A stretch of DNA of 64,000 nt, from NCBI GenBank assembly GCA_022579005.1, contig MU401459.1, positions 62,001-126,000 of the forward strand, written 5' to 3'. The notes beneath the pieces are model-generated. The model saw only the letters and a list, made by a program, of their open reading frames with translations, searched no databases and had not been told where the DNA came from. Shown here in pieces: positions 1,705-37,124 of the stretch. The position numbers were made by a program, and so were the translations under genes. This DNA is from Poronia punctata (taxonomy: Eukaryota; Ascomycota; Sordariomycetes; Xylariales; Xylariaceae). The first letter of the stretch is position 1. Each line of letters starts with the position of its first letter.

Positions 1705-1900
1705 AAGATAAAAAGAGTATTTATAATATTATTTAGTTGCTTGCTAGCAACTTATACTTTAAATAAAAGTATAAAAGTATTTGTAGTATTATTTAATTGC
1801 TTACTAGTAATTAACGTTTTAAGCAAAAGTATAAAAGTATTTATAGTATTATTTAATTGCTTGCTAGTAATATTTTTATTTATAATATTTTTAAGCTGCT
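1705..1900. repeat. 60-bp tandem repeat, about three copies
   Basis: Roughly three copies of a 60-bp unit lie in tandem inside the AT-rich block. Because 60 is a multiple of three, the plus strand stays open and would encode a repeating hydrophobic peptide containing KSIKVF and LFNCLLV. I read this as a minisatellite with a chance open frame, not as a membrane protein gene. Confidence 0.6.
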
Positions 1901-7200: not shown

Positions 7201-7600
7201 AGCATTTATAACTATTACCTTTTTACCTTAAAATTTTTTTTTATTTTTATATTAATTTATTACTTAATTATTTTAATGCTAAATAATATAAATATAACTT
7301 TTTAAGTAATTAATTATTAAAATAAAAAAGTTTTGCTACTAATTATATTTTTATAAAGTTATAGCGCTTAGTTATAATAAGTATAGTGTGCTCTCTTTAC
7401 TAAATCTACTAACCCCTTAAAAAACAAGATCTAAGGTACCCTTATAAGTAATTTAATTAAAAAAGTACATATAAATCTATAACCGTTATTAAATTTACAA
7501 TAGCTATAAAATCTATAACGCTTATTGCCATTTTATAACGCTTACAACTATTGTAAATTCCTTCAATCTCCTGGTACAGTATATTTATAAACCCTGCCCC

Positions 7601-13835: not shown

Positions 13836-14374
13836 AATATTGAGACGGCCCCGGGCAAGGCTAAACGTACGTCTTCCACTCGCATATTTGATATCGGACT
13901 TTTGCATAGGTGTAAATAAGGTATCGAGCTAGACTAGCATGAAGCCATGGAGGGGTGTGCCGATCGCAAGGGCGCCGATTTGCCGATGGTTCGCTTTTCT
14001 GTGGTATTAGTGTGAAACGACTTACTCATGCTATCCTGGCAACAGGAGGGTTTCCAGTATCTTCGATACAATGCAACTTATTGAGCGCAGTGACAGACCG
14101 ATGTTGTAAGGCTCACAAAGTCCAACTCCTCTGGACAGGGTGACAGGAATCGCAAAATACGGCACACCAATAAAGTGTGATAAGTCATAACGTCCCGAGA
14201 CGTAAGAACAAAGATACCTGCCCGATGTAAGCATAAGGTACCCTGTAGAACAGACACAGGCCACAGCAATTTATCCAATCAACACCGTCCAATTATCATA
14301 CTATTCTAGACCAAGCCAAAAGCGGACAGAAGCTTACTTGTATACGACAATTGTACGTGTACGAGTAGGGCCTA
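13836..14374. other. Gene-free flank leading to the 22-kb AT-rich block
   Basis: This stretch has normal composition and no recognised gene. The octamer TACGAGTA occurs at 14,360-14,367, just before the CCTAGG word at 14,371-14,376 where the inverted repeat of the AT-rich block begins. Confidence 0.5.
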
Positions 14375-14527
14375 GGTATGGAGGGCCATTGAGCTATTAT
14401 CTACCATTACCCCAATTCTCTGCATTTTTTTTTTTTTTTTATGTTTTGCATAAAAAACTTTTTTATTTTATATTTTATATTAAAAACTTTTTTATTTTTT
14501 GCTTTATATATAAAACTTTTTTATTTT
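14375..14527 (+). repeat. Left terminal inverted repeat of the 22-kb block
   Basis: The outer 38 bases or so are of ordinary composition and include GAGGGCCATTGAGC and CCATTACC. They are followed by a poly-T run and about 100 AT-rich bases with two or three copies of the word AAAACTTTTTTATTTT. The reverse complement of 36,475-36,626 matches over the same length and order. Most differences are C/T or G/A transitions, as expected if RIP struck the copies independently. Confidence 0.75.
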
Positions 14528-14532
14528 GCTTG

Positions 14533-15815
14533 CTAGCTTTTAAGTAAGTAAGTAATTATATTTTGCTTATTAGCTTTAAAGTTAGTAATTGTATTTTGCT
14601 AGGTAATTATATTTTGCTTGTTAGCTTTAAAGTTAGTAAGTAATTATATTTTGCTTGTTAGCCTTAAAGTTAGTAGGTAATTATATTTTGCTTGTTAGCT
14701 TTAAAGTTAGTAAGTAATTATATTTTGCCCGTTAGCTTTAAAGTTAGTAAGTAATTATATTTTGCCTGTTAGCTTTAAAGTAAGTAATTATATTTTGTTT
14801 ATTAGCTTTAAAGTTAGTAAGTAATTATATTTTGCTTGTTAGCCTTAAAATAAGTAATTATATTTTGCTTGTTAGCTTTAAAGTTAGTAGGTAATTATAT
14901 TTTGCTTGTTAGCTTTAAAGTTAGTAATTATATTTTGCTTATTAGCTTTAAGGTTAGTAAGTAATTATATTTTGCTTATTAGCCTTAAGGTTAGTAAATA
15001 ATTATATTTTGCTTATTAGCCTTAAGGTTAGTAAGTAATTGTATTTTGCTTATTAGCTTTAAAGTAAGTAATTATATTTTGCTTGTTAGCTTTAAGGTTA
15101 GTAAGTAATTATATCTTGCTTGTTAGCTTTAAGGTTAGTAAGTAATTATATTTTGCTTGTTGGCTTTAAGGTTAGTAGGTAATTATATTTTGCTTGTTAG
15201 CTTTAAAGTAAGTAATTGTATTTTGCTTGTTAGCTTTAAGGTTAGTAGGTAATTGTATTTTGCTTGTTAGCTTTAAAGTAGGTAATTATATCTTGCTTGT
15301 TGGCTTTAAGGTAAGTAATTATATTTTACCTGTTAGCTTTAAAGTTAATAATTATATTTTGCCTATTAGCTTTAAAGTTAGTAAGTAATTGTATTTTGCT
15401 TATTAGCTTTAAGGTTAGTAAGTAATTATATTTTATTTATTAGCCTTAAAGTAAGTAATTATATTTTGCTTATTAGCCTTAAGGTTAGTAAGTAATTATA
15501 TTTTGCTTATTAGCTTTAAAGTTAGTAAGTAATTATATTTTGCCTATTAGCCTTAAGGTTAGTAAGTAATTATATTTTGCCTGTTAGCCTTAAAGTAAGT
15601 AATTATATTTTGCTTATTAGCTTTAAGGTTAGTAGGTAATTATATTTTGCTTGTTAGCCTTAAAGTTAGTAAGTAATTGTATTTTGCTTATTAGCTTTAA
15701 GGTTAGTAAGTAATTGTATTTTGCTAGGCAATTATATTTTGCTAGGCAATTATATTTTGCTAAGCAATTGTATTTTGCTTGCTAGCTTTAAAGTAAGTAA
15801 TTATATTTTGTATAA
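14533..15815. repeat. Minisatellite A: about 40 units of 28-37 bp
   Basis: The core word TAATTATATTTTGCTTGTTA, followed by GCTTTAAAGTTAGTAAG, is repeated head to tail about 40 times directly inside the left terminal repeat. Units come in longer and shorter forms, with or without GTTAGTAAG, and differ mostly by C/T and A/G changes. The last few units shrink to about 18 bases (AATTATATTTTGCTAGGC). There is no coding potential. The unique spacers and conserved direct repeats of a CRISPR array are absent. Confidence 0.9.
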
Positions 15816-17136
15816 AATACTAAGGTACTTTACTTAATAAAAATCTACTTATATATAGGTAAATATAATTGCAAATATTGTTATAAAGCTATTTAATGCT
15901 ATAAGCACTTATATATTATATTATTTTCTTACTATATACTTTTTATTTCTTTTTTTTCTTCTTTTTTTTAAGTAACTGGTTATATTTAACTATAAAATAT
16001 AAAGGCTTTTTATACTTTATATTTATATGCTGCTAATATTATTTTAAAGCTTTTATTAATATAGTATTAGTAGCTTTTTTGCTTTTAGTCCTGCTTTATT
16101 TTTTGCTAGCGTAGTTAGCAACGCTGCTTAAAGCAATAAAAGGTCTTAAAAGCTAAATTTTATTTTTAACTATAGCTTTAAGTTTTAATATTATAGCAAA
16201 AAACAAAAACATAACTAAAAAGAAAAAAAGAAAAAAAAGAAACAAGAAAAATTAAAAAGCACTTAATATAATAGCTAATATAATAGCTAACACCTTTTTT
16301 AATACAATAGCTAACACCTTTTTACTAAAATAACTATAACGCAGTAGTACTTCGCTTTTTACTTTACTTTTAGATTTTTTTACTTTTATTACTACGCTTA
16401 TAGCTAAAAAAAATATAGCTAAAAAAAAAAGTTTTTTAAAAAAAGAGGTTATAAAAGAAAAGGCTTTAAAGGCCTTGCCCTTTTTACGTTAAAATGCTTA
16501 TATACTAGCAACTAGTATACAAAAAATATACTTATATGTTAGCTATATTTAAAGCGTATTAAGTGGTTAAGTAGCTATAGTAAAGTATATTAACTTTGTT
16601 AGTGCTTATACTACTTATTATAAATAGTATGCTAGTAGTAACTATAGCTATATTTTAATATAAGTTGCTTTAATATAATATAGCTAAGCTTTTATATTAA
16701 TTTATATATAGCTTACTATTTTTTATTTTAATGTTTAACTAACTTTTTAATATAGTAATAAGCAGTTAAAGTTGTTAAAGTTAAGTAAGTATATATTATT
16801 TTAGCTTTTTTATGTTTGCTTGTTTTTAATATATATTATAAAATATTGTTAGCATTTTATATACTATACGTTATTTATTAAATAAGCTTAACATTTTAAC
16901 TGCTAGCTTTGCTAGTAAAAATGCTTATAATAATGCTGTATATATAAAAAAGGTAAAAAAGCTATATAAGCTTTTTAATAAGCTTATTTTATTGCTTACT
17001 AAAAAAAATAATTAAAAAGAAAAAAAAAAAAAGAAAGCTTATATAAAGTATTGCTATATTAGCTTTATAACTTATTATTGTATATATTTTCTAGCTTAAA
17101 AAAACTAAACGTTTTTTATATAATATTTTTTAATAT

Positions 17137-17316
17137 TTAGCTACTAAAAATATTAAAACCTTGCTAAAGTATATATAAACTAGTAGCAAGGCTATATTTA
17201 GCTACTAAAAATAATAAGCTTTAATATAGTATATATAATAAAGTAGCAAGGCAAAGTTTAGCTATTAAAAATAGTAAACTTTAATAAAATATATATATAT
17301 ATAATAAAGTAGCAAG
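17137..17316. repeat. 60-bp tandem repeat, three copies
   Basis: Three adjacent copies of about 60 bases contain AGTAGCAAGGC and TTTAGCTACTAAAAAT. They lie inside the 22-kb AT-rich block and show the same transition-type divergence as the longer arrays. Confidence 0.7.
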
Positions 17317-19789
17317 TTTATAACGTAATATTTATATTTTTTTATAGTATTATAGCTTATAAAATAATAAACTTTTGCTTTAAATATAATAAACTTACTG
17401 CTTTTTAAAATATTATAAGCCTAGGCTAAATTTAAAGTAATATTAAGTAGGTTACGTAAATGCTTACGTAGTTACTAGCTATTGCTACTATTTTTGCTAA
17501 AAAATAGGGTTTTATTTAAAATTAGGTATATATGCAGTATAAGTACCTAAGTACTTGCTTTAGTTGCTTAACATCTTTATTTTTTACTTTTTAAATTATA
17601 TTTAGCTTTTATGCTTATATATTTAGCATTTTATATTAGCTAATAGCTTTTTATTTTTATACTAAGGTTTTAAGTAAATATAGTTTATTTATTGCTTTTA
17701 ATTAGTAAAGAACGTAATAATTAATAAAGGGTATATATACACTTTTACTATACTTATATTAGTTTTATAAAAATGTTTATAACAATATAACTAAAATTTA
17801 AATATTTTATAATAAAAACAGTTTATTTAAAAAGCTAATTATAAAGTAAATAAATAAACTTATTGCTTTTAAATTTAAAGATAATATATTAAATAAGCTA
17901 AGTAATTATATAACTAAATATAATAGTAAACTATATTATAAACCTTTATAGCTATACTTTTTGTTTATTTATAATAATTATATTTATAACTACTAATATA
18001 AGCAAATTAGCTGCTAACTTTTATTAAAGCAAAAAATATAAGTTATTTTTTGCATTAAAATAACTTATATAAATGTTACTTAAATAAACTATAGCGCAGC
18101 TATAAAAAAAATTTAGTTTATAAAGTATATTGCTTTTTATACTATATAAAAAGCTAGGTTTAAAAAATTTATATTTTAAAAACAGCAGGCTATAGTATTT
18201 GTTTATATAATAACAGCTTTATTAACAAAAAAAAAGCTAATTTAATATAGTTATACTTATATTAAAAAGTAATAAGTAAATATAAAATATTTTTTATATT
18301 TATAAGGTTAGTTGCAATATTTTTTATAGTTTTAGTAACTATAAAGTAATTTTTTTTATATTTTTATATAATAAAGTAAATATAAGCAGTAAATATAATA
18401 GTAAGCTTTATTATTAAGTACTTAAATTAGTAAGTAAAACAAGTTATAAGTAGCGTTATAGTTAATATTAAAAAAAAGGACTTAGATAATTTTTTTAGCT
18501 GTTTAGGTTGCTAGAAAATTAAAGCAGGTTTTTAATATATTTATATATTAAAAATATAATTTAAAAAAAGTAAAAAGTAAACTTAAATACTTTTTTTTTA
18601 GTTAACAAAGTAAATATAAATACTTATTATAATAATAATCTTTTTATTAAAGTAATAGTTTTTTTATTTAAGCAATAATCTTTTTATTAAAGCAATAATT
18701 TTTTATACGCAATATAAGCAGTTAAACAAAAGCTTTTTAATTTATAAAAATCTACGTATTTTTTTATTTAATTAAATTTATTTTTTGCTTATTTAAAAAT
18801 AGCAAAACATGCTAGCTTATTAAATAAGTATATTGTAAGCAATACGTCTTTTAACTTTATTTTGCTTAACGCTGCCTTTTTGCTTTTTAGCAACTTTTTT
18901 AAAGCTTTAAAATTGTTATTTATATAGTTTTTTTAATAAAATTATAAGTCTTTACTTATAAGCTTTGTTTTTAAGTAGCGTTAAACTTACTAGCTTATAT
19001 ATAGTACTTATAGCTAATTATAGCAAGCAAGCAAACAACGCTTATATAAAAGCTTAATAGTATAGTTTTTACTTTAGTTAAAAGCTTACTACTAAATTTA
19101 ATAAAGTTAGCAACGTTTTATTGCCTATATAGTAATTAGCTAGTGCTGCTTTTATAATCTTATTTAAAAATAAATATAAAACTAGTAAAATAATATAAAA
19201 GTTTAAGTTAAATATTTTTTTTTTTTTTAAATATTTAAACTTTTTAAACAGCAATAATAAAGCTTATGCTATACGCTATTTTTTTTTATAACAAAGTTAC
19301 TTTATACTATATTATATACTTTAATTATATAGCTTTTAATTAAAGATAATATAATTATTAATATAAAAACGCAGTATAAAGTAAATTTGTAGCAAAAAAA
19401 AGTTTAAGCTTAAAGCTTTTTAACTATTTACTTTAAGTTTTAAATAAAAGTTTTTTTTTTTATTATAAGCAAATTAAATAAATTATTTTAAAAACCCTTT
19501 AATAAACTTATAGCATTATTATTGCTTTTAATATACTTTTTTTAATATAAAGAATATAAGGGGCTATAGCTAAGTTTATAATTTTTTTATTTACTTTATA
19601 TTTTAAAATTTTAATAAAGCTAACAATGTTTATATTTTATAAAATTACTTTAGCTATATTGTTGCTAATATATACTATAAGCAACTGCTATATAATATAA
19701 AAATTTAAGTGCTTTATTTAAATATTTTTTTTTATAACTTTTGCTAACTTTTTAAAGTTACTAGCTAGGTTTTAATATTTGCTAGCAAA

Positions 19790-20450
19790 AAACGTATATA
19801 CTTTTTATTGCCTACTAACTTCTTATTACCTACTAACCTTTTACTGCTTACTAAGCTTTTATTGCTTACTAGCTTCTTGCTACTTACTAGCCTTTTACTA
19901 CTTACTAAGCCTTTTAGTATTTTTAGCTTAGCTTTTAATACTTGCTAATAAAAAACGTATATGCTTTTTGCTGCTTACTAGCCTTTTGCTACTTACTAAT
20001 TTCTTACTACTTACTAACTTTTTTAATATTTTTAGCTTAGCTTTTAATACTTGCTAACAAAAAACGTATATACTTTTTGCTGCTTACTAACTTTTTGCTA
20101 CTTACTAACTTCTTGCTGCCTACTAACTTCTTGCTGCTTACTAACTTTTTTAATATTTTTAGCTTAGCTTTTAATACTTGCTAATAAAAAACGTATACGC
20201 TTTTTGCTACCTACCGGCCTTTTGCTACCTACTAACCCTTTACTACTTACTAACTTTTTTAATATTTTTAGCTTAGCTTTTAATACTTGCTAATAAAAAA
20301 CATATACGCTTTTTGCTACCTACTAACTTTTTGCTACCTACTAACTTTTTGCTACTTACTAGCTTTTTTAATATTTTTAACTTAGCTTTTAACACTTGCT
20401 AATAAAAAACATATACGCTTTTTATTGCCTACTAGCTTTTTTAAGTTATA
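19790..20450. repeat. Minisatellite B: six compound units of about 110-140 bp
   Basis: Each compound unit starts with ACTTGCTAATAAAAAACGTA, continues with two to five copies of an approximately 19-base sub-repeat (GCTTTTTGCTACTTACTAAC and variants), and ends with TTTTTAATATTTTTAGCTTA. Changes in sub-repeat number give the unequal unit lengths, which points to slippage or unequal exchange after the compound unit formed. Confidence 0.8.
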
Positions 20451-20795
20451 AGTATAGCTAGCAACGTTATGCTAATAGTATACAAAGCTATTAAAAAATA
20501 GCTTACAAAGTAGTATTTTAGCTTACAACTAAATAAGATTAACTTTATTTATAATTAAAATAATAGTTTTATAATTAAAAATTATTTTTTACTAATAAAA
20601 AATATATATACTTACTAGCCTCTTGCTACTTACTAGCTTTTTTAAGTTATAGGCATAACTAATAGCGTTATACTAATAATATATAAAGCTACTAAAAAAT
20701 AGCTTATAAAGTAGTATTTTAGCTTATAACTAAATAAAATTAACTTTATTTATAATTAAAGTAATAGTTTTATAATTAAAAATTATTTTTTGCTT
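20446..20795. repeat. Direct duplication of about 165 bp
   Basis: Two copies (about 20,446-20,610 and 20,643-20,795) share, in order, a GTTATAxTAATA word, AAAATAGCTTA, AAAGTAGTATTTTAGCTTA and ATTAACTTTATTTATAATTA. They follow directly on minisatellite B and overlap its last unit, so the duplication is probably part of the same repeat process. Confidence 0.65.
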
Positions 20796-21819
20796 TTAAA
20801 AGCGCTTAATTTAGCTTATATAAAAAACTTGCTAGCAAACATATTTTAAAAATGTTATAATATATATTTAAAAGTAGCTGGTAATAGTAAGTGTTAATTA
20901 CTTTTATATACTTATAATACTAAAATAATACTTAAAGCAATATTTAATATAAAAATTATTATAATATATACCTTTAACTGTTTAAACATATTAAATAATT
21001 AACTTTTTTTAAATTAAATTACTATTTTTACGCTTTTAAAGCTAATAAGCTTTTATATTAACTTTATAAGCGTTTTAAAAAACTATTAGCAGCAATAAAA
21101 CCTTTTAAAAAACAATGTTTATATTTTTAAAAAATATATTATTGCTTAAAAGTAATAAAGACTTTAGTTATTTATAACGTAATAAAAAAGCTATAAAAAC
21201 TTAATGCTATATAAGCAACTAAAAACTAAATAAAGAAAAAAGCTTTAAATAGTAGTAAATAGCTTAGCTAAAATAAAATCTTAAGCTTATATTATTTTTA
21301 AAAAACTTGCTAATAAAAAATATAAATAGCTTTTATTATTACTTTTTTTAATTTTTTATAGCCTTTATAGTAGCTACTAGCACTTAGTAGCAAGTAGTAT
21401 ATATACTAGCTATTAGTATTAAGCTAAAGTTAGTTTAAAGTTTAAAAGTAAAGTACTAAACATTTTTTTAAATTTATGCTACTTTTAAAAAAAAAGTTTT
21501 TAATATTATATAGCAACTTATAATAAAATTAAAAAACTTTATAAACTTAATTATTAATAGCCTTATTATTAGTTTATTAAAACTGCTTAGTTAAAAAAAA
21601 CTTTATATAGCTAGTAAATAATAGCCTAATTATTAGTATATAAAAAATAATAAAAAATAAACTTTATATAAGCTATATGCAATAATTTTAATTATAAGTC
21701 TATATATTTTTAGTTTAATAAAAGCCTTGCCTTTTATTATAAACTTAGTAGCTTAAAAAAGAAAATAAGTAGTAGGCCTTAAGCATAGCTTATTTTAAAT
21801 ACTAGTACCTATAAAAAAG

Positions 21820-22560
21820 CGCTTTTAAAAAAAGCAATAGCTATTATGTACTTTATTTAAAGTTATAAAAGTTTGCAGCACTTTTATTATAGTTAAATTA
21901 ACTATAGTAGCGCTAGTAAAAGTACGCTAATAGTTACTTTTAAATTATAAAACTAATAAAAGCTTAAAGTACTATTTTTTTAATTAAAACTAAAAAAAAT
22001 AGCAAATAAAAACTTAAAAAAGTATTTAATAGTTAAGCAAAATAAACGCTATAAAACTACTAAGAAAAAAAAAAAGACTTAGTAGCTATTAGTACTAACT
22101 TAAAAGTGTTTTTAATTAGCTTAAACTAACTTTTTAGCTATATAACTTTATAAAGTACTGTTGCTAAATTAAAAGCAGCTATAAAAGCATATATTAATAA
22201 CTTGTTATAAGCAACCTTATAAAGCAATATATAAAATTAAAAGCAGCTTAAAAAGCTTATACTAACAATTTTACTTTTTAACTTATAATGCTTTTTTTAT
22301 AAAGCTAATACCTTAGTAAAAAAGTAATAAATACTATAATGCTTATAAAACTACGCTTAGGTTTAGCTAAAGGCTAATATAATAAGTTAATAATAATAAA
22401 AGTATTTTTTTTAAATTAGCACTGCTAAGCAATGCTTTTAAAAAGGTAAATAGCTATTATATACTTTAATTAAAGTTGTAAAAGTTTATAGCACTTTTAA
22501 TATAACTAAGGCTATGCTAGCGCTAATTAAAGCATATAAGTAGTTATTAATAGCCTATAC
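21820..22560. repeat. Dispersed direct repeat pair of about 125 bp
   Basis: Two similar stretches, about 21,825-21,945 and 22,430-22,555, share AATAGCTATTATxTACTTTA, AAAGTTxTAAAAGTTTxxAG and CACTTTxATATA in the same order and orientation. The roughly 480 bases between them do not repeat. The origin is unknown. Confidence 0.5.
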
Positions 22561-22649
22561 TTATAGCTTAATATAAAAAAAGAAAACCTTATATAATTAT
22601 ATATAAAAATTTAATTATTAATTAAAATATAGGAGTTAGGCTACTAATA

Positions 22650-23805
22650 CTTATAAAAAAGGTTTTTTATTAAAAAACTATAAAACTACTTTTATTAGCA
22701 ATACCTCTTATTACTAAAGGGCAATACTTTTAAAGCTAACTATAATGTAACCTTTACTAGCATTACCCTTTATTGCTAAAAAGCAATACTTATTGCTAAC
22801 ACCTACTAGTTAGGTCTTTTATTAAAAGATTATAAAACTACCTTTACTAGCAATACCCTTTATTGCTACAAGGCAATACTTATTGCTAACACTTACTAGT
22901 TAGCTTTTTTACTAAAAAACTATTATACTACCTTTACTAGTATTACTTTTTATTACTAAAAGGCAGCACTTATTACTAACACTTACTAGTTAAGTTCTTT
23001 ACTAAAAAACTATTATATTACCTTTACTAGCATTACCTTTTATTGCTAAAAGGCAGCACTTTTAAAGCTAGCCTTTAAAGCTGGCTATAATGCTACCTTT
23101 ACCAGCATTACCCCTTATTACTAAAAGGCAATACTTATTACTACTACTTACTAGTTAGGTCCTTTATTAAAAAACTATAAGACTACTTTTACTAGCATTA
23201 TTTTTTATTACTAAAGGGCAATACTTATTGCTAACACTTACTAGTTAGGTCTTTTATTAAAAAACTATAAAACTACCTTTACTAGCGTTACTTTTTATTA
23301 CTAAAAGGCAACACTTTTAAGGCTAACTTTTAAAGCTGACTATAAGACTACCTTTACCGGCATTACCTTTTATTGCTAAAAGGCAACACTTATTGCTAAT
23401 ACTTACTAGTTACGTTTTTTACTAAAAAACTATTATGCTACTTTTACTAGCATTACTTTTTATTGCTAAAGGGCAGCACTTTTAAAGCTAGCTTTTAAGG
23501 CTAGCTATAATGCTACCTTTACTAGCATTACCCCTTATTGCTAAAGGGCAGCACTTTTAAGGCTGGCTTTTAAGGCTGGCTATAATGCTACCTTTACCGG
23601 CATTACCTTTTATTGCTAAAGGGCAGCACCTTTAAGGCTAGCTTTTAAAGCTGGCTATAATGCTACCTTTACTAGCATTACCCCTTATTGCTAAAAGGTA
23701 ATACTTATTGCTAATACTTACTAGTTAAGTCTTTTATTAAAAAACTATAAGACTACCTTTACTAGCATTACCTTTTATTGCTAAAAAGCAATACTTACTA
23801 ATACT
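22650..23805. repeat. Minisatellite C: about 11-13 units of 85-110 bp
   Basis: The units contain CTACCTTTACTAGCATTACC, TTTATTGCTAAAAGGCA and either an ACTTACTAGTTAGGTCTTTT or a TTTTAAAGCTAGCTATAATG segment. The two segment types alternate irregularly, so this is a higher-order mixture of two related unit classes. Several units keep GC-richer words such as AAGGCTGGC, meaning they are less mutated than the surroundings. Confidence 0.8.
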
Positions 23806-23814
23806 TAGTATAGT

Positions 23815-24715
23815 ATTATATGCTAGTTTGTAGGACATATTACACCTTAGGCTAGCTAAGCAAGAATTATTAACTGTTATAAATTATTATACTAGTTACT
23901 TATATTTTTAAGTAAATACTAAAAATATAGTACTATAGCAGTTATAGTATATGCTACTATTTGCTTTAAATTTTATAGTAGCTATTATAGTTTTTTACTA
24001 AATATTAAAAAAAAAAGGCTATAGCGTACTTTAGCATATGCTGCTAATAACTATAAATAATATAGTAGTTATAAAAAGGGGCTTGTAGCTACTTTTTTTA
24101 TATACTTACTAGCTTTACTTAAGTTAAAAATATAGCTTAAACGCTTTTTATTTAAGTAAGCTTTTTTTAATAAATTATTTATATAGGAAATTTTAAAAGT
24201 TAACTTATAAAACTACTTTTTAATTAAATTAAAAAAAGGTTAAAAAATAGTTAGGTTGTTAGCTTTATATAGCACTAAGTGCTAGTTATTGCATTTTACT
24301 GCACCTTAAGGCATTATAGTAGGCATTAACAACTGTAATAAATTTTTATACTAGCTAATAACTTAGACTTTTTAGCAGTTACTATATTTTTAGTTTTATA
24401 GCGTATATAACGTATACTATTTATTGCTAAAGATAGTTTAGTAGTTACTATAACTTTTAAAACTTATTATAAGTATAATAAAATAGTATACTTTAATATA
24501 CTTAATAACGTTATTAACTACTATAAATTATTAAAGTAGTTATTAAAAAAAGCTTGCAGCTGCTTTTTTTATATACTTACTAGCTTTACTTAGATTAAAA
24601 ACATAGCTTAAAGGCTTTTAATCTAGGTAAGCTTTTTTTAATAAATTATTTATATAGGAAATTTTAAAAGTTAACTTATAAAACTACGTTTTTAATTAGT
24701 TAAAAGGTAGTTAAA
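23815..24715 (+). repeat. Two tandem copies of a 450-bp family (left arm)
   Basis: Two head-to-tail copies (about 23,815-24,245 and 24,246-24,715) share a 3' segment. It reads ATACTTACTAGCTTTACTTA, then a near-palindromic hairpin (arms ACTTAGATTAAAA and TTTTAATCTAGGT around ACATAGCTTAAAGGC in the second copy), then TATAGGAAATTTTAAAAG and TTAACTTATAAAACTAC. The same family occurs in the opposite orientation at 29.04-30.09 kb. Confidence 0.75.
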
Positions 24716-24764
24716 GAAAAGTTAATAAAAACTAAAAACTAATAGCTAGATTTTACTGCTTTTT

Positions 24765-26290: not shown

Positions 26291-26394
26291 TATAAAACTA
26301 AAAATATTATAATATAATTATTATATATTAAATTTATATTTTTTATATAATAAGTAATTATAAAATTAATTAAGCGTAAAAAATACTTAGAAAG

Positions 26395-26605
26395 TAAAGA
26401 TTAAAAAGCTATTTAAAAGCTTATTACGCTTTTAATACCTAGGTCTAGTTACTTATAAGTAAAATAAAGCTTAAAAGCTATTTAAAAGCTTTTTGCGCTT
26501 TTATTGCCTAAACTAATATAGCTATAAAGTAGCTATAAGGCTAGAGGGCTAAAAGGCTAGCCTAAAGGTTATAGCGCGCTTAATACCTAGACTTATAATA
26601 GGTTT
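26395..26605. repeat. Outlying units related to minisatellite E
   Basis: Two or three diverged units carry AAAGCTATTTAAAAGCTT followed by a CGCTTTTAATACCTAGG-like word. They resemble minisatellite E but are separated from it by about 700 bases of non-repetitive AT-rich DNA. Confidence 0.6.
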
Positions 26606-27339
26606 TAAAAAGTAATAACAGGTTTTTTTAATAGATTTTCTACTTTAAAAAACCTTGTACTACATTATATATACTAGAAAATATAATATAAAATAAATAG
26701 TTTTATATACTTTAAATATTAAGTTATTATTAGCATATTATATTTTAACTTTTTATACTGTTATTATAATTTTATTATAGTTAAAATAATTTATATAAAT
26801 TTAATATATAGTTATTAAAAATAAAAATATTTAAACATTAATATAAAAATTAATAAAAAATGTTTTAAAATTACTAAGTAATTAAGTAATTATTATATAT
26901 ACTTAAAGTTTATAAAATAGGGTTTAATAGTTTTATATAAGATTTTAAATATTTAGCTAAACTTTTATAAAAGTAGCGTATATAAAAAACACGTTATTAA
27001 TAAAAATAAAAATTAAGCTTTTATATATATAAACTAGGTTTTAAATCTAGTTTATAAATTTACTAAGTTTATATTTTTTATATTTTTATTTAATATAATA
27101 TAAAGCTTTAAATACTAAAGTTTAAAAATCTTTATTTTGCTAAATTTTAAAGCTTATAAGCTAGTTTTATACTTAGTATATAAGCTATCTTTATTAATAT
27201 ATAAATACCTTTATTAATATATAAATATATTTAATATAAATTAATAAAACATATTTTTTTAAAAATTTTTAAATTATAAAGAAAAAAGGTAATTAATTTT
27301 TTAAATAAATAAGTTTTAATATAAGTTATTAAATCTAGT

Positions 27340-29010
27340 TATTACTTTTTAAAGCAATTATAGTTAAGTATAAAGTAACTATAAAGCTAAAAAGCTAAAT
27401 AGCTACTTTAAAGCTTATAGTGCTTTTAGTACTTAAGCTAAAGTAGCTATAAAGTAACTTTAAAGCTAAAAAGCTAAAAAGCTACTTTAAAGCTTATAAC
27501 GCTTTTAATACCTAAGCTAAAGTAGCTATAAAGTAATTTTAAAGCTAAAGGGCTAAAAAGCTGCTTTAAAGCTTATAGCGCTTTAAATATTTAAACTTAG
27601 TTAGCTATAAAGTAACTTTAAAGCTAAAAAGCTACTTTAAAGCTTATAGCAGTTTTAATTTTTAAGCTAAAGCTAAAAGGCTAAAAAGCTAAAAAGCTAC
27701 TTAAAAGCTTATAACGCTTTTAGTATTTAAACCTAGTTAGCTATAAAGTATAATAAAGCTAAAAGCTACTTAAAAGCTTACTATGCTTTTAGTACTTAAA
27801 CTTAGCTAGCTATAAAGTATAGCAAGGCTAAAGGCTACTTAAAAGCTTACTACGCTATTAATACTTATGCTAAAGTAGCTATAAAATATAATAAAGCTAA
27901 AAAGCTACTTAAAAGCTTATAGCGCTTTTAATACTTAAACTTAGTTAGCTATAAAGTATAGTAAAGCTAAAAGCTACTTAAAAGCTTATAGCGCTTTTAA
28001 TACTTAAACTTAGTTAGCTATAAAATATAGTAAAGCTAAAAGCTACTTAAAGGCTTATTGTGCTTTTAGTACTTAGACCTAGCTAGCTATAAGGTATAGT
28101 AGGGCTAAAAGCTACTTAAAAGCTTACTATGCTATTAATACTTATATTAAAGTAGCTATAAGGTATAGTAAGGCTAAAAAGCTACTTAAAGGCTTATAGC
28201 GCTTTTAGTACTTAAACTTAGTTAGCTATAAAGTATAGTAAGGCTAAAAGCTACTTAAAGGCTTATAGCGCTTTTAGTTTCTAGGCTAAAGTAGCTATAA
28301 GGTATAGCAAGGCTAAAGGCTACTTAAAAGCTTACTATACTTTTAGTTTTTAAGCTAAGGCTAAAAGGCTGGAGAGCTACTTAAAAGCTTATAGCGCTTT
28401 TAGTACTTAGACCTAGTTAGCTATAAGGTATAGCAGGGCTAGAAAGCTACTTAAAGGCTTACTGCGCTTTTAGTTTTTAAGCTAGAGTAGCTATAAAGTA
28501 ACTTTAAAGCTAGAGGGCTAAAGGCTACTTAAAGGCTTACTACGCTTTTAGTTTTTAGGCTAGGGTAGCTATAGGGTATAGTAGGGCTAAAAGCTACTTA
28601 AAGGCTTATAGCGCTTTTAGTTCCTAGGCTAAAGTAGTTATAGGGTATAGCAGGGCTAAAAGGCTACTTAAAAGCTTACTACGCTTTTAATACCTAGGCT
28701 AAGGTAGCTATAAAGTAACTTTAAAGCTAAAAAGCTACTTTAAAGCTTTTAGCGCTTTTAGTACCTAGATTTAGTTAGCTATAAAGTATAGCAAAGCTAA
28801 AGAACTAGAGAGCTACTTAAAGGCTTATAGCGCTTTTAGTATTTAAACCTAGTTAGCTATAAGGTATAGTAAGGCTAAAGGCTACTTAAAGGCTTACTAT
28901 GCTTTTAATACTTATGCTAAGGTAGCTATAAGGCTAAAGGGCTAAAGAGCTACTTAAAGGCTTATAGCGCTTTTAGTACCTAGGCTAAGGTAGCTATATA
29001 GTATTGCAAG
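27340..29010. repeat. Minisatellite E: 20 or more units of 60-95 bp
   Basis: Units contain GTAGCTATAAAGTATAG or GTAACTTTAAAG, then AAGCTAAAAGCTACTTAAA, then GCTTATAGCGCTTTTAGTAC. Unit length varies because an internal AGGCTAAA-type word is itself repeated one to three times. The array ends abruptly at the right arm of the inverted-repeat family. Confidence 0.85.
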
Positions 29011-29039
29011 GCTAAAAGGCAAGGATTATAAAAGCAAAT

Positions 29040-30090
29040 GCTTTTTTTACTACCTTTTTTTTTTTAGCTATAAGGCTTTTATAGCTTTTATAGTATTTAT
29101 TATTTTTTATTACGTTTAATTTTTCTTAACTACTTTTTAACTAGCTATAAAAGTAATTTTATAAGTTAACTTTTAAAATTTTCTATATAAATAATTTATT
29201 AAAAATCCTTTACTTAAAAATAAAGCCTTTAAGCTATGTTTTTAACCTAGCTAGGGTTAGTAGGTATATAAAAAGGGTAGCTATGACTTTTTTTTAATAA
29301 CTTTTATAATAATTTATAGTTGTTAGCAGTGTATGCTAAAGTACGCTGTAGCTTTTTGCAGTATTATTATTTATATAATAAGTATCTAGAGCTTAGAGAG
29401 CACATGAGGTCTTGCTTAATACTTAGTTACCTTAAATACTAAAAACACCTTTAGTATATGCCTTAGTACTATTTTTATAAACTAGGTATTTAGAGCATAA
29501 AGAGCACCTAAGGTCGTGTTTTTTTAACCTCTTTTTAATTAGCTAAAAAAGTAGTTTTATAAGTTAACTTTTAAAATTTTTTATATAAATAATTTATTAA
29601 AAACAGCTTACTTAAATAAAAGCTTTTTTAGCTGTGTTTTTAATTTAAGTAAGGTTAGTAAGTATATAAAAAGGGTGGCTGTAAGCTTTTTTTTATAACT
29701 ATTATAGTAATTTATAGCTATTAATAATGTTAGTATGCTAAAGTATGCTTTAGCTGCTAAGGTATGCTATAGCTTTTATTAGTACTTTTAATAAGTACTA
29801 AAAGCCCTAGGAGCACTTAAGTATATATTTAATTTTTTAGTTTTTTTAAGCACAATAAGCACTATAAGTACTAGTTTTAGTACTTTACTTATATATTAGG
29901 ATTTAAAAGCATAAAGAGCACTTAAGGTTGTGTTTTTTTAACTTTTTTTTAACTAGCTAAAAAAATAGTTTTATAAGTTAACTTTTAAATTTTCTTATAT
30001 AAATAATTTATTAAAAATAGCTTACCTAGATAAAAAGCTTTTAAGCTATATTTTTAACTTAAATAAAGCTAGTAAGTATATAAAAATTAA
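29040..30090 (-). repeat. Three inverted copies of the 450-bp family (right arm)
   Basis: About 29,040-29,525, 29,526-29,935 and a partial copy at 29,936-30,090 are reverse-complement relatives of the family at 23.8-24.7 kb. They carry AGTTAACTTTTAAAATTTTC, the interrupted palindrome around GCTATGTTTTTAA, and TTAGTAGGTATATAAAAAGG. Two of them also contain AGAGCACCTAAGG-like words that match, in reverse, the TTAGGTGCTCTTT core of minisatellite D. Confidence 0.75.
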
Positions 30091-33000
30091 AGATTTTAAG
30101 CAATATATTGCTATTAGTACTGCTTAGTTTTGCTAATATTAATACGTAGCTAACTAAATATTAATTAAAAGGTATAAGGGCTTAAAAAGTATATAGTAGT
30201 AAGCACTTATACTTAAAAAAAACTTATGTAGGCATAAAAAAGTAAAATAAAATTTTATTATTATTTAAAATAATAGCTACTTTTTAGTAGTAAGAGAAAT
30301 GCTATAGCTTTTATAATAAAAGCTAGCTACTTTATAGTAGCTTATAGCAACGTTTATAAGTAATTAATAATGTTGCTATACTATAGTACTATTATATATA
30401 ATAGTGCATACTTAGTTTTTTAACTTAAACAATATTTATTAACTTTTTTTACTAGCGCTGTTATAGTTTTTTAAGCTATAGCAAAAGTGCTGCTACTATA
30501 GTAACCTTAAATAAAGTGCATAGCAAATTGCCTTTTTTTTTAGCTGTTTAGCTATTAGTTTTATTATTTTAACTAAAAAAATTTAGTACTTATGTTTTAA
30601 CTTAATTAGTAAATATAAACTATTTAAAAAGGGCTGCGTTTTTTAAAACGTGTTGTTATTTTAGTAAGCATAGCTAAGCAGTACTAATAGGCTACTATAA
30701 TTAAATAGTAAATATTAAAGCAATTTAAAATTAATTTAGTAAGGTTTTAAACGCGTAATAAAGCTATAGTTTGCGCTTATAATATATAATAACGTATAGT
30801 GCTATTTTTTTTTATATTAGGTATGCTAAAGCGTAAACTAGCAAAATAAATAATAAACTAAAATAAAAGCGCAGCGCTTATGCGCTAATAGGAAATATAT
30901 GTATATAATAGCTATTAATAAGGTTAGTTATAATATTTATTATAAAAAGCTTTTGCTAATTTTCTTTTTTATATAAAATATAGCAATATTGCTATGCATT
31001 TTACTATAAACTTATTATTAAGAGCAAGCTTAAAAGCTTTTAATAAATACTTAGTTTTTTTAATTATTATAGCTTTAAAAGTTAAAATTAATTTACTATT
31101 TTATAATAGTTAGCTATAAAAATAAGAAAACAATAAAAAAAAGGAAAGTAATACTAGTATTGCTACTACTTTAATAGTTGCTTATAAACATAAATAGCTA
31201 TTAAAAGCTAAGTTAACTTTTTTATTATAAGCAAAACAGCAAGGTAGCTAAGTAAGATTATATAAAGTAGCTAAGTAAAAGCTTTAGCTTAAAGCTATAG
31301 TAGGTTAAGTAGTAATATATAAAACCTATACTATTATAATTAAAAGCAAGCATTTTATAAAGTAAGTAATAGCCTATAGCTTTGTAGGTTTTAAAGTTTA
31401 GCTTTTAAAGTTATAGTAAGGTTAAATAGCACCTAATGCGTACTATGCTGCTTAAATTGTTTTAAGCATTTTATTAAATAAGGTAATAAAAGCTTTTAGC
31501 AGTATATTTTTATTTTAAAAATAAGCTATATATATTTAAGCATATTAAATAACTTAATAGCAAAATTGCAAATAGCTTACTTAATTAGTTATTGTTTATT
31601 TAATAGTATATTATTACTTAAATAACTATAGTATTTTTAAAGCTAATATTAACAAGTTTTAACTAGATATTTTTATTAAATTAAAAACTAGTACTTTTTA
31701 AAGCCTTTTAGTTATTTATAACTTATAAATTATATAGCCTTGCGCTAGCAATAGTTTATTTAAATTTTTGCTTTATTAACTTTAAATAGCAAGGTTTTAG
31801 CTTGCTATAGTTATAATAAGTAATTAAAGGTTAAAGCTTAACTTTAAAAAAAAAGTTTAAAAAACAGCTACTATATTTAAAAAAAGTAGTAAGCGTATAA
31901 TATTAGTAGGTTAAGTAGTTATATTTTATAAATATATTAACTTATATTGTTAAGTGCTTAGCAGCATTTATTAAGTAAAGTAGTAGCAGCTTTAAAAAAG
32001 ATAGTTTATAGTACTAAAAGGCTAATAAATTTTAATATATATAACTTATACTGCTTTTAAATTTTTAAAAACTAGTAGTTTAAAAGCTTTTTACTTAAGT
32101 AAAAAATAGCAGCTTTAAATAATATAGCTTTTAGTTATAATAGTAGGCATAAGACGCTATACTATATACTAGTAGATTATATAACTTTAAAACGTATTTA
32201 TAAGCATACTATACTAATGCTTATATAAATAATATATTTGTTTGTAAGTAAATATACTAGCTTTTATAAGCTTTGCTAAAAAGCAACTATAAAAAATAAT
32301 ATTTATTATCTTTTTATATACTAAAAATAGTATAAAATAATAATTTTATAGTACTAAGGTATATATTTAGCTATACTAAATACGTTATTAGTAGTAGCAA
32401 TATTTTTTATTTATAATAAAAACTATATATTTTAATAGTAGATTTATTATAAGGTAGTATATAGTGCTATATTTTAATAAGAATTTTTTATACTATAATA
32501 AAATAAAAAAAATAAAAAGGAAAAAAGGCTAAAAAAAAAGAGTAATAAATAAAGCGTTGCGTTTTTATATATATAAAAGTTTTTTGCTAGTTTTTTAACC
32601 TAGCCTAGCCCTTTTTTTTTTTATAATTTTTATTTTTTTTTATTTTCTGCGTTTATTTATTTTTAGCTTTATTTTTGTTTACTTTTGCCTACTATAGTTA
32701 TTTAAAGCTAAAGCTATAGCTACTAGCATAATAAATTTTAAAAAACTAAGTTTTGTTTGCTTTATTAGTTAAAAGCTTTATAGCGCAATTTAATAAAAAT
32801 ATTTTAATTATAAGCAATGCTTTAGTTATAGCAAATCTTAGCTTAAGCTGCTTATATAGATAGCAATAAATAAAAAGTATAGTAAAAACTTTTACTATAT
32901 AATTTAAACTAGATACTTTTTAACTAATAGCTACCTTAGTTATAAAAAAAAATAGCTTAAGTTAAACTTTATTAAAATTTTAAATAATAAGCTAAACTTA

Positions 33001-34039
33001 AATATGCTTATATTAAATTTGCTATGTTTTTTTGCTTAACTTACTACTATTAACTACGCTTTAAACGCTATATTTTTTTTTAGCAAGTTTATAACTACTT
33101 TACTTTGCTTAACTTATAATAGCAATATTAATTTTAAAAACTTTAAAATACTAGTTTTATATAAAACCTTAAAAATAAATAAGCTATATAATTTTAATAT
33201 AAGTATAAAAAAAGCTAAAAAGCAGTTAAAGTTATTTAAAAAAATTAGGCGTAAGCTAGATAAAGTACTATATTTAGCTATATTTATATAATTAAAATTA
33301 TAAAAATTATATTATTATTATAATAAAATTAAAATTTTTATATTTTAAAATAAAAAGCTAGTAAGCAAGTTTAAATACTACTTTTTATTTTTATATAAAT
33401 ATGCTAATATTTAATAAGCTTTATATAATATTAATACCTTTATATGCTTATTTAATAATCTTGCTTAAAATAAAAATAATTAGCTTTAATTATTTATTAA
33501 ACTACTAGTTAATTTAAAATATTATATATATTTTAAATAAATAAATATAATAATATAAAGTAAAATTAATAGTTAGTTATAAACTAAATTGCTAAAATAG
33601 CTTAAATTAAATAGTAATAGCTAATATTGCTTAATAAAAAACTTGCTTAAAAAAATAAGCTTATTATACTTAAAAGTATTTAAATGCTTAAAGTATATTT
33701 ATATATTTAGTACTAGGAAAACCTTATTTTTATTATAAACCTAGTAAAAAAAAGTAATGTTTTTGCTTTTAATTTAAAAAATAAAGCATTAAAAGCTTTT
33801 TTTACTATAATATTTTTAGTTAGCTAAAATAATAATTATAGCTAGTAACTAAAAAAGCATAAGCATTTAAGCTTTTTAGTATAGTTAATTAAAAGTTTTA
33901 TACTTTTAGCTTAGTAGCTATATATAAAAAAATTATTATTACTATTTTAAAAAAAGCTGTTGCTATTGCTATTATTATTATTACTGCTATTATTACTAGC
34001 TTTTTTATTGCTTTAATTTTTTAAAAAGGTTTTAATATT

Positions 34040-34480
34040 TAAGCTACTAAAAAAATTAAAAACTTTGCTTTAGTTTGCTTAGTAAAACTTAATGCTAACT
34101 TTATTATTACTTTAGTTTACTTAGTAAAACTTAATACTAACTTTATTATTGCTTTAGTTTGCTTAGCAAAACTTAATACTAACCTTGCTACTATTTTAGT
34201 TTGCTTAGCAAAACTTAATACTAACCTTATTACTACTTTAGTTTGCTTAGCAAAACTTAAAGCTAACTTTGCTAAAGTTTAGTACTTAATAAAACTTAAA
34301 GCTAACTTTATTAAAGTTTAGTACTTAGCAAGACTTAAAGCTAACTTTACTAAAGTTTAGTATTTAATAAAATATAAAAGCAACTTTGCTAAAGTTTAGT
34401 ACTTAGTAAAATATAAAAGCAACTTTGCTAAAGTTTAATACTTAATAAAACTTAAAGCTAACTTTATTAAAGTTATATAA
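34040..34480. repeat. Minisatellite F: about ten units of 40-58 bp
   Basis: Units combine TTTGCTTAGTAAAACTTAA with TGCTAACTTTATTATTGC in the first half. They change to a shorter form, AAAGCTAACTTTGCTAAAG plus TTTAGTACTTAATAAAA, in the second half. It lies in the right part of the 22-kb block. Confidence 0.75.
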
Positions 34481-36474
34481 TAAAAGTTTAAAAAAACAAA
34501 AAGGCTATAAAGTATTTTATTTTATTACTACTACTGCTATTATTACTAAGCTTTAAAAGTTAAAAAAACTAATAAGAAAAAAAAAGTAGTAAGTAATAAA
34601 AAGCAAGTTAGCTACTTATTTATATAAATTTTATTATTTTATATTTTTTTTTTTTTTTATTTTTTTTATATATACTTAGTGTACTTTTAAAGGTTTTAAA
34701 AGTAGCATTGCTTATATTTTCTTAGTTTTTCTTTAAACCTTAAAGTATACTTTAAAAAACAAAGTTGCTTAGTAAGCTATTATATTTTTTATAAATTAAA
34801 TAGTTTTAATTTAATATATTTAACTAAGTATATTAGTAGTTAAGTATTTAATAATATAGTATATTTAACTTATATATATATTAAAGCTACTAGTTAAATA
34901 TAAAGTAATTATAAAACAAAGCTTTTAGCTTAACTTTTTATAATTATATATACGCTATTATAGTTTTAAATATATTTAAAAATATAAACGTTAATAGTTA
35001 GCATTATTATAAAATTTTTATTAAAAGCTTATTTTTTTTAGCTATTTATTATATTATTGCTTTATTTTTATAAATATAAAAGCATTTATTTTAACTTTTT
35101 TTAAAAGTATAGCTATAATATAAAGCATTTTTTTAGCTATAAAGCTTTTAAGTATAAAAATTTTTTAGTTATTAGCGTAGTTTTTATAAATTTTAAAAAG
35201 TTTTTTAGCAATAATATAAAGCTAGTTTTTTTGCTTTTAAATTTTATAGTTATTTTAAAGTTATATAAATTACTTTACTTTTTAATAAAGCATAAGCTTA
35301 TAAATTATATATATAGCAATAAAATCTTAATAGTTATTAAAGTTAAAATATTTAGTTATAAATAGTTTATTTATAAAATAAATTTAAAAATTAGTTAACT
35401 TGTATTAAAAGCTATGCTACTATGCTTTAATTTTTTAGTTTTATTTACTAGTTTTTTATAAATAATAAAAAGCTAGCTAATTACTTTAATAATAAATAAA
35501 GTATGCGCTATTAAAGCTTTTATATACTATATTAGTTTTATTAGCTTTAGCAAAAAAGCTTTAAACGCTAGCAAAAAAAGCAGTTTTAATACTTATATTT
35601 ACTTAAATAAATAATAGTTAAAAGCTAGCAAATATTATTATATATATATATTGCTTTAAAATATTTATTAAAGTATAAGCAGTTAAGCTAATATAAATTT
35701 AAATAATTATACGTAAATAAGCGTTAATATAAACATAAATTTAAAATAATTAGCTAATACTTTTTTAGCTATACATTTTTTTACTTACTTTAAACTTTAT
35801 TTTTTAAAGCTTTATATATTTATTAAAATACTATATAAAATTATAGCTAAAAATAATATATTGCTTATATTAATATATAGTTAACTTGCTTTTTTATTAA
35901 ATTTGCTTTAGCTATATTTTTTTATAATATTAGTAAATAAAATTTTTACTAATAACAAAGCTTGTTTAAGTTTAAATAAACTTATAAAAATAGTTTTTTT
36001 TAAACTTTTTAATTATAAAACTACGTTATAAATGCTAAGTAAAAAATTTTTATACTTATTAATTAGCTTTATTGTATTTTTAAAGTTTATAGCGCTATTA
36101 TAATATGCTATACTAAGTTTAAATTTGTTAAATTATTTGCTAACTTATTTTTAAGTAGCTAATTTTAGCTAAGTATTTTTATATAAATTTATTACTTTAG
36201 CTATAACTAAAAAAAGCTTAGATTTTTTTAGTAAAATTTTTAATTTAATATTAGCTTTTTTATTTTAAGCTTTATTTATAAAGCTAGCGTTATAAAGTAT
36301 AAAGTTTATATTTACTGCTATTTTAGTTAATATTTATAAAAATATTATTAATATTATATTTAAAATAAAATAAATTTATAATCTAGTTATAAATAAAATT
36401 AATTTAAAAAAAAAAACAAAGCATTATAAATAGTTTAAACTATAAGCAAGATAATATTATATTTTAGTATAAAA

Positions 36475-36626
36475 AATAAAAAAGTTTAGTATGCAAAATA
36501 TAAAAAAAAAAAGTTTTTTGTATAAAACATAAAATAAAAAAGTTTTTTGTGCAAAACATAGAAAAAAAAAAAAAAAGTGCGGGGAAATAGGTAATGGCGG
36601 ATAATGGCTTAACGGCCCACCGTCCC
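36475..36626 (-). repeat. Right terminal inverted repeat of the 22-kb block
   Basis: Read on the minus strand, this begins next to TA with GGGACGGTGGGCCGTTAAGC, continues with CATTATCCGCCATTACC, a poly-T run and AT-rich words with AAAAAACTTTTTTATTTTAT. It parallels 14,375-14,527 base for base over most of its length. The right copy keeps more C and G than the left copy (CCATTATCCGCC against TATTATCTACC), so it is less mutated. Confidence 0.75.
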
Positions 36627-36628
36627 TA

Positions 36629-37124
36629 GGGGTGATGACGCACGCACCAAAATTGTTGAAGAGTTGAGCAAGGTGCCTAGCTCGGGAGCTGTTTGTCGTC
36701 ATGGACTCATGGGCTTGTATTAGGTCATACTCTCAGCGCCGAACGCCCACTTTGTCCTAACCAGCCACTCATCTGCCCGACAAACCATTGCTGTCCATCC
36801 GTCACCACATTCATTGATAGGGCAATCTACCACTAACGATCTCTGTACCCACTACCTGTGTGCAACAGCTACCAGTACCCATGAACCACAACTTCCCACC
36901 TACAGCAGTAGATACTTGCTTTGCACCTACTCTCACACCCCAAAATCTAACGTCTACAAAGTAGCAGGTCCAACCTGACCACCCCTCTCTCCGAGCTTCT
37001 CTCCTGTTTCCTGTCGCTCAAACCTCTCATCTTCGTTCTCTAGAGCTTGGGCTCAGTTGATTCGAACATCTTTTATTTCATATACTAGACACGCGACACA
37101 CCACCATCCTCGCATATCTGTAAC
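36629..37124. promoter_or_regulatory. Upstream region of the Pom33/TMEM33 gene
   Basis: This stretch has ordinary composition and no gene. From about 36,980 onward the plus strand is pyrimidine-rich (CTCTCTCCGAGCTTCTCTCC), as is common just upstream of fungal transcription starts. I see no convincing TATA box. Confidence 0.4.

What the first reader, a model, noticed from the sequence alone, without database searches (positions are those of the whole stretch)
14373..36628. A 22.25-kb AT-rich block bounded by matching inverted repeats at TA dinucleotides
The two edges of this block are inverted copies of each other over about 150 bp, including 38 GC-normal outer bases, and both abut TA. The whole block may therefore be one giant TIR element or a composite, not random repeat build-up. 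It has no visible gene but at least six tandem arrays, which does not fit any standard transposon class I know.
Basis: partly seen in the sequence, partly recalled or inferred. Interest (0 to 1): 0.75.

Follow-up and report, generated by a model that had tools for sequence, protein, structure and literature searches.

The report
Giant fungal transposon silenced by mutation
The block is one of at least eleven insertions of a mobile DNA element of about 22 kilobases in a fungus-like genome, bounded by matching inverted ends and a six-base duplication, and wrecked by a repeat-mutating process; it is large for its kind and its mobility enzyme is still unidentified.

Summary
It spans 14377-36624 (22,248 bp); its ends match at 82.7% over 150 columns. 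The duplicated target is not TA but the 6-mer CCTAGG (14371-14376, 36625-36630). The 45-Mb genome shows 9 left and 12 right ends; all 9 left ends have a right end with the identical flanking 6-mer: four in the same contig, 21.6-22.2 kb apart, and five on another contig (0.01 matches expected). With two orphan right ends this gives at least 11 insertions. A terminal pattern search found no solo ends, only one 2.3-kb rearranged derivative on C19. Against that GC-normal derivative the window copy differs by 322 C>T/G>A, 4 reverse transitions and 26 transversions, so repeat-induced point mutation (RIP) made it AT-rich and destroyed its genes. Stop-poor stretches survive mainly in the right 4 kb. 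No transposase was identified. The 6-bp duplication and left terminus TATGG resemble fungal IS3EU elements (such as Styx, 7.9 kb), but the right terminus is not TA, so membership is not claimed.

The parts
14377..36624 (+). Whole element, 22,248 bp; one of at least 11 insertions in this genome
   Evidence: Ends, flanks and length computed; related copies
14371..14376 (+). [quoted passage not shown]
36625..36630 (+). [quoted passage not shown]
14377..14527 (+). Left terminal inverted repeat, begins TATGGAGGGCC; inner part is 3.4 copies of a 29-bp unit
   Evidence: 82.7% over 150 columns to right end; 29-bp unit
36473..36624 (-). Right terminal inverted repeat, begins (reverse complement) GACGGTGGGCC; inner part is 3.4 copies of a 29-bp unit
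14603..15725 (.). 37-bp tandem array, 31.4 units here; 13.3 in C68, 20.6 in C80, 23.4 in C30
19800..20441 (.). Array of 18/36/54/109-bp units
22750..23796 (.). Array of 75/90/165/255-bp units; ARAGORN's tRNA-Leu call at 23460-23530 lies inside it and is probably spurious (judgement)
24777..26297 (.). 96-bp tandem array, 15.8 units here; 14.8 in C68, 8.8 in C80, 5.8 in C30, 7.8 in C139
27551..29018 (.). 69-bp tandem array, 21.1 units here; 25.4 in C68, 22.1 in C287 (in the other copies the fetched pieces cut the array)
29121..30086 (.). 414-bp unit, 2.4 copies
34068..34474 (.). 42/39-bp array; its GC-rich un-RIPed form survives in the C19 derivative
17732..18527 (+). Discrete repeat shared with 9 contigs outside the family (65-75% identity; same left boundary in 6 of them); a nested LTR-like insertion is inferred
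   Evidence: one of the nine read
15873..16623 (.). Stop-poor stretch, possible gene relic (strand unresolved)
32673..33423 (+). Stop-poor stretch, possible gene relic
33873..36423 (.). Stop-poor in one codon phase (strand unresolved: the in-phase minus frame is second); possible gene relic nearest the right end; at 35129-35428 the best frame has 2-3 stops in each of nine aligned copies

Best explanation
The block is a single cut-and-paste-type DNA transposon of about 22.2 kb with ~150-bp terminal inverted repeats. It inserts by a 6-bp staggered cut, which gives 6-bp target duplications with no fixed sequence. It spread recently to at least 11 sites as nearly identical copies, and RIP then turned them into AT-rich, gene-dead DNA. 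Shown: the ends, the duplications, the number of ends, the shared interior and the direction of mutation. Inferred: that movement was by a DDE-type transposase acting on the terminal repeats, most likely one of the IS3EU kind (as in Styx), and that its gene lay in the right 4 kb where stop-poor frames survive. The tandem arrays are most simply passive repeats that grew and shrank between copies. How likely: one mobile TIR element with 6-bp duplications silenced by RIP, about 0.97; moved by an IS3EU-like transposase, about 0.5.
For: 9 of 9 left ends have a right end with an identical adjoining 6-mer (CCTAGG, AACTAG, CACCTA, GAAGGT, GACGTG, CCCCTT, GAAGGT, GTCGTT, GATGCC). For the five left-only ends 0.01 chance matches are expected against the 8 right-only ends, and all five find one. 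C68 and C80 match the window element without interruption and C30 with one ~430-bp interruption. Among 9 copies of the right 3.3 kb, 548 of 569 variable ungapped columns are A/G or C/T only, so the copies were near-identical before RIP. Against the GC-normal C19 derivative, 484 bases of 33527-34040 show 157 C>T/G>A, 2 reverse transitions and 13 transversions, and 615 bases of 17900-18528 show 165, 2 and 13; CpA 111 of 131 and CpG 81 of 106 mutated. Fungal IS3EU elements are described with 6-bp duplications, TIRs over 30 bp and TAYGG..CCRTA ends (PMC12730594 section 3.1.3); Styx is a 7,927-bp element of IS3EU affinity with 6-bp duplications (PMC10853768 passages). Here the left end is TATGG in 5 of 9 copies and TATAG in 4, the latter a RIP-type change.
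Against: No transposase was found. Pfam scans of all six X-masked frames of 15700-25698 and 28601-36650 gave 0 families at E<=1; profile searches of two gene-like stretches, which score only word-sharing candidates, gave none at E<=0.1 (7992 and 4205 candidates). The right end begins GACGG (7), AACGG (4) or GACAG (1), never TA, in 12 of 12 right ends, whereas complete IS3EU families are said always to have TA..TA ends (PMC10045372). One further end, the C19 end at 10815, is right-type in its inner part but reads TATAGGAGGGCC. 22 kb is nearly three times Styx. Host-codon scoring does not support the un-RIPed C19 piece of 33.5-33.9 kb as coding. In six of the ten contig pieces of the split copies the match is broken by other sequence, so those copies are not shown to be intact inside.
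Confidence: 0.6

Rival explanations
1. A giant non-autonomous passenger: the 22-kb element has no transposase gene of its own and was moved in trans by an enzyme made by a different, perhaps lost or unassembled, relative that shares its terminal repeats.
For: No transposase detected; between 14373 and 32600 only 9 of 113 AT-rich windows are stop-poor, 4 of them in the 96-bp array; the C19 derivative shows that shorter forms with these ends existed.
Against: No other full-size element sharing the ends is among the 21 pattern hits; in the right 4 kb 11 of 24 windows are stop-poor, at the top of the 0-47% range of seven other AT-rich stretches whose coding content is unknown.
Confidence: 0.25
2. 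A RIP-destroyed Maverick/Polinton (self-synthesising virus-like transposon), which would also be 15-20 kb with inverted repeats (6-bp duplications recalled).
For: Size, long inverted repeats and 6-bp duplication fit; size and polymerase as defining feature are in PMC4046053 passages.
Against: DNA_pol_B_2 (PF03175) not found in the genome (its control rang in 1 of 14 genomes), though that mode can miss RIPed genes; no sign of dense coding across the element; AG..TC ends, recalled from memory, are not met.
Confidence: 0.1
3. Two independent short insertions (MITEs) of one family happen to bracket an unrelated AT-rich block.
For: Only the similarity of the two edges in a single window suggested it.
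Against: The same arrangement recurs at 21.6, 21.9, 22.2 and 22.2 kb in four contigs with matching 6-bp flanks and shared interiors; no solo ends among 21 pattern hits.
Confidence: 0.01
4. A Starship or other tyrosine-recombinase giant element.
For: Giant size in what looks like a filamentous fungus.
Against: Long inverted repeats and 6-bp duplications without a shared target motif fit poorly (recalled knowledge of Starships); DUF3435 (PF11917) gave no match in the genome, but its control was silent so this says little.
Confidence: 0.03

Closest known systems
Styx (Zymoseptoria), DNA transposon of IS3EU affinity (PMC10853768, PMC9970103)
   Same: Class II element of an ascomycete, 6-bp duplications of varied sequence, bursts of near-identical copies, degenerate copies in sister species (passages).
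   Different: Styx is 7,927 bp with a 36-bp TIR and four ORFs including a DDD/E transposase; this one is 22.2 kb with ~150-bp TIRs, seven tandem arrays, no recognisable ORF, and its right end is not TA.
IS3EU of rusts and Tuber (PMC12730594)
   Same: 6-bp duplications, TIR longer than 30 bp, left terminus matches TAYGG (section 3.1.3).
   Different: Right terminus here is CCGTC, CCGTT or CTGTC instead of CCRTA; transposase not demonstrated.
Maverick/Polinton
   Same: Size range; long inverted repeats and 6-bp duplication (recalled).
   Different: No polymerase, capsid or integrase recognised; coding-like signal confined mainly to the right end; terminal bases differ (recalled).

Membership tests
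TIR (cut-and-paste) DNA transposon, in general | Terminal inverted repeats | tested here: met
   82.7% over 150 columns
TIR (cut-and-paste) DNA transposon, in general | Fixed-length target site duplication at each insertion | tested here: met
   6 bp in 9 of 9 paired insertions; 2 right ends have no partner in the assembly
TIR (cut-and-paste) DNA transposon, in general | Encoded DDE transposase | tested here: inconclusive
   0 Pfam families in X-masked frames; genes destroyed by RIP; RIPed integrases elsewhere in this genome were found only with a related protein query, and no IS3EU protein was available as a query
IS3EU | 6-bp duplication | tested here: met
IS3EU | TIR longer than 30 bp | tested here: met
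IS3EU | Both termini TA (TAYGG..CCRTA in fungi) | tested here: not met
   Left 9 of 9 begin TA; right 0 of 12 begin TA in reverse complement
IS3EU | IS3-like DDD/E transposase | tested here: inconclusive
   PF00665 matched 3 places and PF13683 matched 1 in the genome, none inside a copy; PF00665 did not list the 26 stop-ridden integrases that one search found
Maverick/Polinton | Protein-primed DNA polymerase B | tested here: inconclusive
   PF03175: 0 matches; family mode can miss RIPed genes
Maverick/Polinton | AG..TC termini (recalled) | tested here: not met
   Termini TATRG and RACRG
Starship | DUF3435 tyrosine recombinase | tested here: inconclusive
   0 matches but control silent
MITE | Short elements, many copies of the termini on their own | tested here: not met
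   21 pattern hits: 19 on family sequence, 2 bounding one 2.3-kb derivative
RIP target | Directional C>T/G>A change in repeated DNA, CpA favoured | tested here: met
   322 against 4 reverse; CpA 111 of 131 mutated, CpC 47 of 127; the locus of the C19 derivative is 48% GC

The most novel reading that the evidence does not exclude
The family is a previously unrecognised superfamily of giant fungal TIR transposons (or a new, greatly enlarged lineage next to IS3EU): 6-bp duplications, asymmetric TA..TC termini, subterminal 29-bp repeats, long variable tandem arrays, and a transposase unlike any in Pfam.
Probability: 0.2. Interest if true: 0.75.

Novelty: new variant of a known kind. Interest (0 to 1): 0.5.

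Why it matters
If a 22-kb TIR element can multiply to eleven near-identical copies in an ascomycete-like genome, the size range of cut-and-paste-type elements in fungi is wider than examples such as Styx (7.9 kb) show. It would also account for long AT-rich blocks with large tandem arrays, and it complicates assembly: five copies here are split over two contigs and were paired only through their 6-bp duplications. The un-RIPed derivative beside the mutated copies gives a direct measure of RIP direction and context in this species.

Tried and rejected
TA as target: rejected, the duplication is 6 bp in 9 of 9 pairs. Chance repeat build-up and independent MITEs: rejected. A coding reading of the un-RIPed C19 pieces P0001 and P0002: none of 4075 candidates at E<=0.1, Pfam none, host-codon scores like intergenic DNA except in the simple repeat part, on a scorer right in 31 of 34 held-out windows; not relied on. 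In-silico RIP classifier for strand: right in 11 of 19 held-out windows and over-mutated (GC 0.08), so discarded. Profile A1 against solved structures gave two matches at E 0.38, profiles A3 and A4 none; A4 against Pfam none, A1 one member at E 2.4. A2 was built in a stop-rich minus frame by mistake and not used. The C8 integrase fragment is elsewhere in the genome and not part of the element, but its 26 stop-ridden relatives show that RIPed genes can be found when a related query exists. The core at 17732-18527 was first taken for a conserved gene; the one relative read, on C2, is also AT-rich with no ORF above 61 aa, so a nested LTR-like repeat is preferred. Rfam: nothing at gathering scores. 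Not scanned with Pfam: 14373-15699 and 25700-28600 of the window copy, and the other copies except the members of A1 and A4.
Full report
What was checked. The window lies in a 45-Mb, 573-contig genome (G000, contig C6:62001-126000). The flanks, which hold long ORFs, have 50-51% GC and the block 21%. The edges of the block are inverted copies: 82.7% identity over 150 columns, with 3.4 copies of a 29-bp unit just inside each end.

The true ends. Searching the genome with the left edge gave the other family ends. Lined up at their outer edge, all 9 left ends begin TAT(A/G)GAGGGC and the 12 right ends, read inward, begin (A/G)AC(A/G)GT(A/G)GGC. In the window the element is 14377-36624. The bases just outside are CCTAGG on both sides. 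TA is therefore part of the element on the left and part of the host duplication on the right.

Duplications. Four left-right pairs lie in one contig (C6 22,248 bp; C68 21,565; C80 21,923; C30 22,175), each with identical 6-mers outside. The other five left ends each find a right end on another contig with the identical 6-mer: C139-C87 GACGTG, C333-C431 CCCCTT, C353-C358 GTCGTT, C192-C163 GATGCC, C56-C106 GAAGGT. GAAGGT also occurs at C30. Three right ends find no left end: C287, C468 and the C19 derivative. The expected number of chance matches among the 5 left-only and 8 right-only ends is 0.01. This gives 11 insertions; a further fragment (C542) shows internal sequence but no end.

One unit, with later damage. 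C68 and C80 match the window element from end to end and C30 is interrupted once, by about 430 bp; the C68 piece that holds its right end includes 10 N. Of the ten contig pieces of the five split copies, C139, C87, C106 and C431 match as far as fetched (C106 to 127000 of 128624, C431 to 10000 of 18745). Six are broken by other sequence: C333 (next to LTR-like repeats), C56 and C163 (next to the repeat family of window 1-8300), C353 (6.7 kb, after which the element resumes), and C192 and C358 (0.7 and 1.05 kb unmatched up to the contig end). These are most simply nested insertions. Identity by 500-bp tile is mostly 84-97% outside the arrays.

Solo ends. A pattern of the outer repeat with up to 3 mismatches found 21 places and none for the pattern read backwards. 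Nineteen sit on family sequence and two bound one 2.3-kb element on C19. The C431 end, with a one-base deletion, was found by BLAST only.

RIP. The element has TA/AT 1.86 and (CA+TG)/(AC+GT) 0.41 against 0.83 and 1.09 in the left flank. In 9 copies of the right 3.3 kb, 3136 ungapped columns hold 569 variable ones, 548 of them A/G or C/T. The C19 derivative lies in a 6-kb piece of 48% GC. A RIP-aware alignment shows it to consist of an inverted stretch matching 36362-36618 and 33527-34238, a stretch matching 17900-18528, and a right end, with a ~310-bp high-copy repeat inside. Its 3' end is right-type; its other end is right-type within but reads TATAGGAGGGCC at the edge, and I found no duplication. 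It is a rearranged relic. Aligned without favouring a direction, 1099 bases differ from the window by 322 C>T or G>A, 4 T>C or A>G and 26 transversions; CpA 111 of 131 mutated, CpG 81 of 106, CpT 83 of 143, CpC 47 of 127. Of these bases 615 lie in the repeat at 17900-18528 that also occurs outside the family, so 484 (157, 2 and 13 changes) are the cleaner sample; both give the same answer. The AT-richness is thus acquired, and the near-absence of other changes says that the copies were nearly identical, hence recently spread, when RIP hit them. Why C19 itself escaped is not shown; its shared stretches are short.

Genes. Stop codons are fewer than expected in 15.87-16.6, 32.7-33.4 and 33.9-36.4 kb and in some arrays (32 of 146 windows with z below -2.2, 14 below -3). 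At 35129-35428 the best frame has 2-3 stops in each of nine copies. In another scan 11 of 24 windows of the right 4 kb but 9 of 113 of the rest were stop-poor; seven other AT-rich stretches gave 0-47%. Which strand was read is unsettled: the in-phase minus frame is nearly as open. No family, structure or homolog was recognised (the best of these were E 0.38 and E 2.4, taken as chance). The approach can work on RIPed genes when a related query exists: a 147-aa integrase fragment from C8 found 26 stop-ridden relatives, none in the element. Lack of a match is therefore lack of the right query as much as absence.

Tandem arrays. Seven arrays (37, 18/109, 90, 96, 69, 414 and 42/39 bp) are seen in the window copy, and the 37-, 90-, 96-, 69- and 39/42-bp arrays recur in other copies with other lengths, for example the 96-bp array 15.8, 14.8, 8.8, 5.8 and 7.8 units in C6, C68, C80, C30 and C139 (piece boundaries cut some arrays). 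They predate the spread. A 0.8-kb piece at 17732-18527 is also found on nine contigs outside the family at 65-75% identity, with the same left boundary in six, and looks like an older nested repeat.

What it is. Movement as one unit with a fixed 6-bp duplication is shown. A DDE transposase is inferred. Among kinds with 6-bp duplications, fungal IS3EU elements have TAYGG..CCRTA ends and TIRs over 30 bp (PMC12730594: outline, abstract, results parts 1-2 of 3 and figure legends read); PMC10045372 (passages) says complete IS3EU families always have TA..TA ends. Styx, in an ascomycete, is 7,927 bp with 6-bp duplications (PMC10853768 passages). The present left end fits; the right end fails in 12 of 12. 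So it appears to work like an IS3EU element but is not filed as one. Maverick/Polinton fits by size (PMC4046053 passages) but not by termini (recalled) or coding density.

Print status. Searches of the open-access library listed no paper whose title or abstract start describes a 22-kb TIR element with 6-bp duplications in an ascomycete. Passages or sections of seven papers were read (PMC12730594, PMC10045372, PMC10853768, PMC11645255, PMC9970103, PMC2836005, PMC4046053); the rest were seen as listings only. Repbase could not be searched and most subscription papers are not held, so novelty is provisional. The species was not identified; that it is an ascomycete is inferred from RIP and gene look, not shown by a call.

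Noticed in passing
   Followed up: partly
L033:2622-2940 (C19): A ~310-bp high-copy repeat that recurs in same-strand pairs about 12.65 kb apart on several contigs, as LTRs of a ~13-kb retrotransposon would.
   Followed up: partly
C8:227287-227727 (L042:84-527, minus): A 147-aa integrase-core fragment without stops, matching rve and rve_3, with 26 stop-ridden relatives in the genome.
   Followed up: partly
C30:81992-82421: A ~430-bp stretch interrupts the element in this copy, apparently a later insertion.
   Followed up: no
C333:1-7830, C56:193586-199287, C163:1-2493, C353:18466-25187, C192:75396-76095, C358:27373-28424: Other sequence breaks the element match in six pieces of split copies; in three it begins with known repeat families of this genome, so nested insertion is likely.
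   Followed up: partly
window 47800-47894 and 46697-46730: Short TACCCAA and TTGGGT arrays, telomere-like in look but internal.
   Followed up: no
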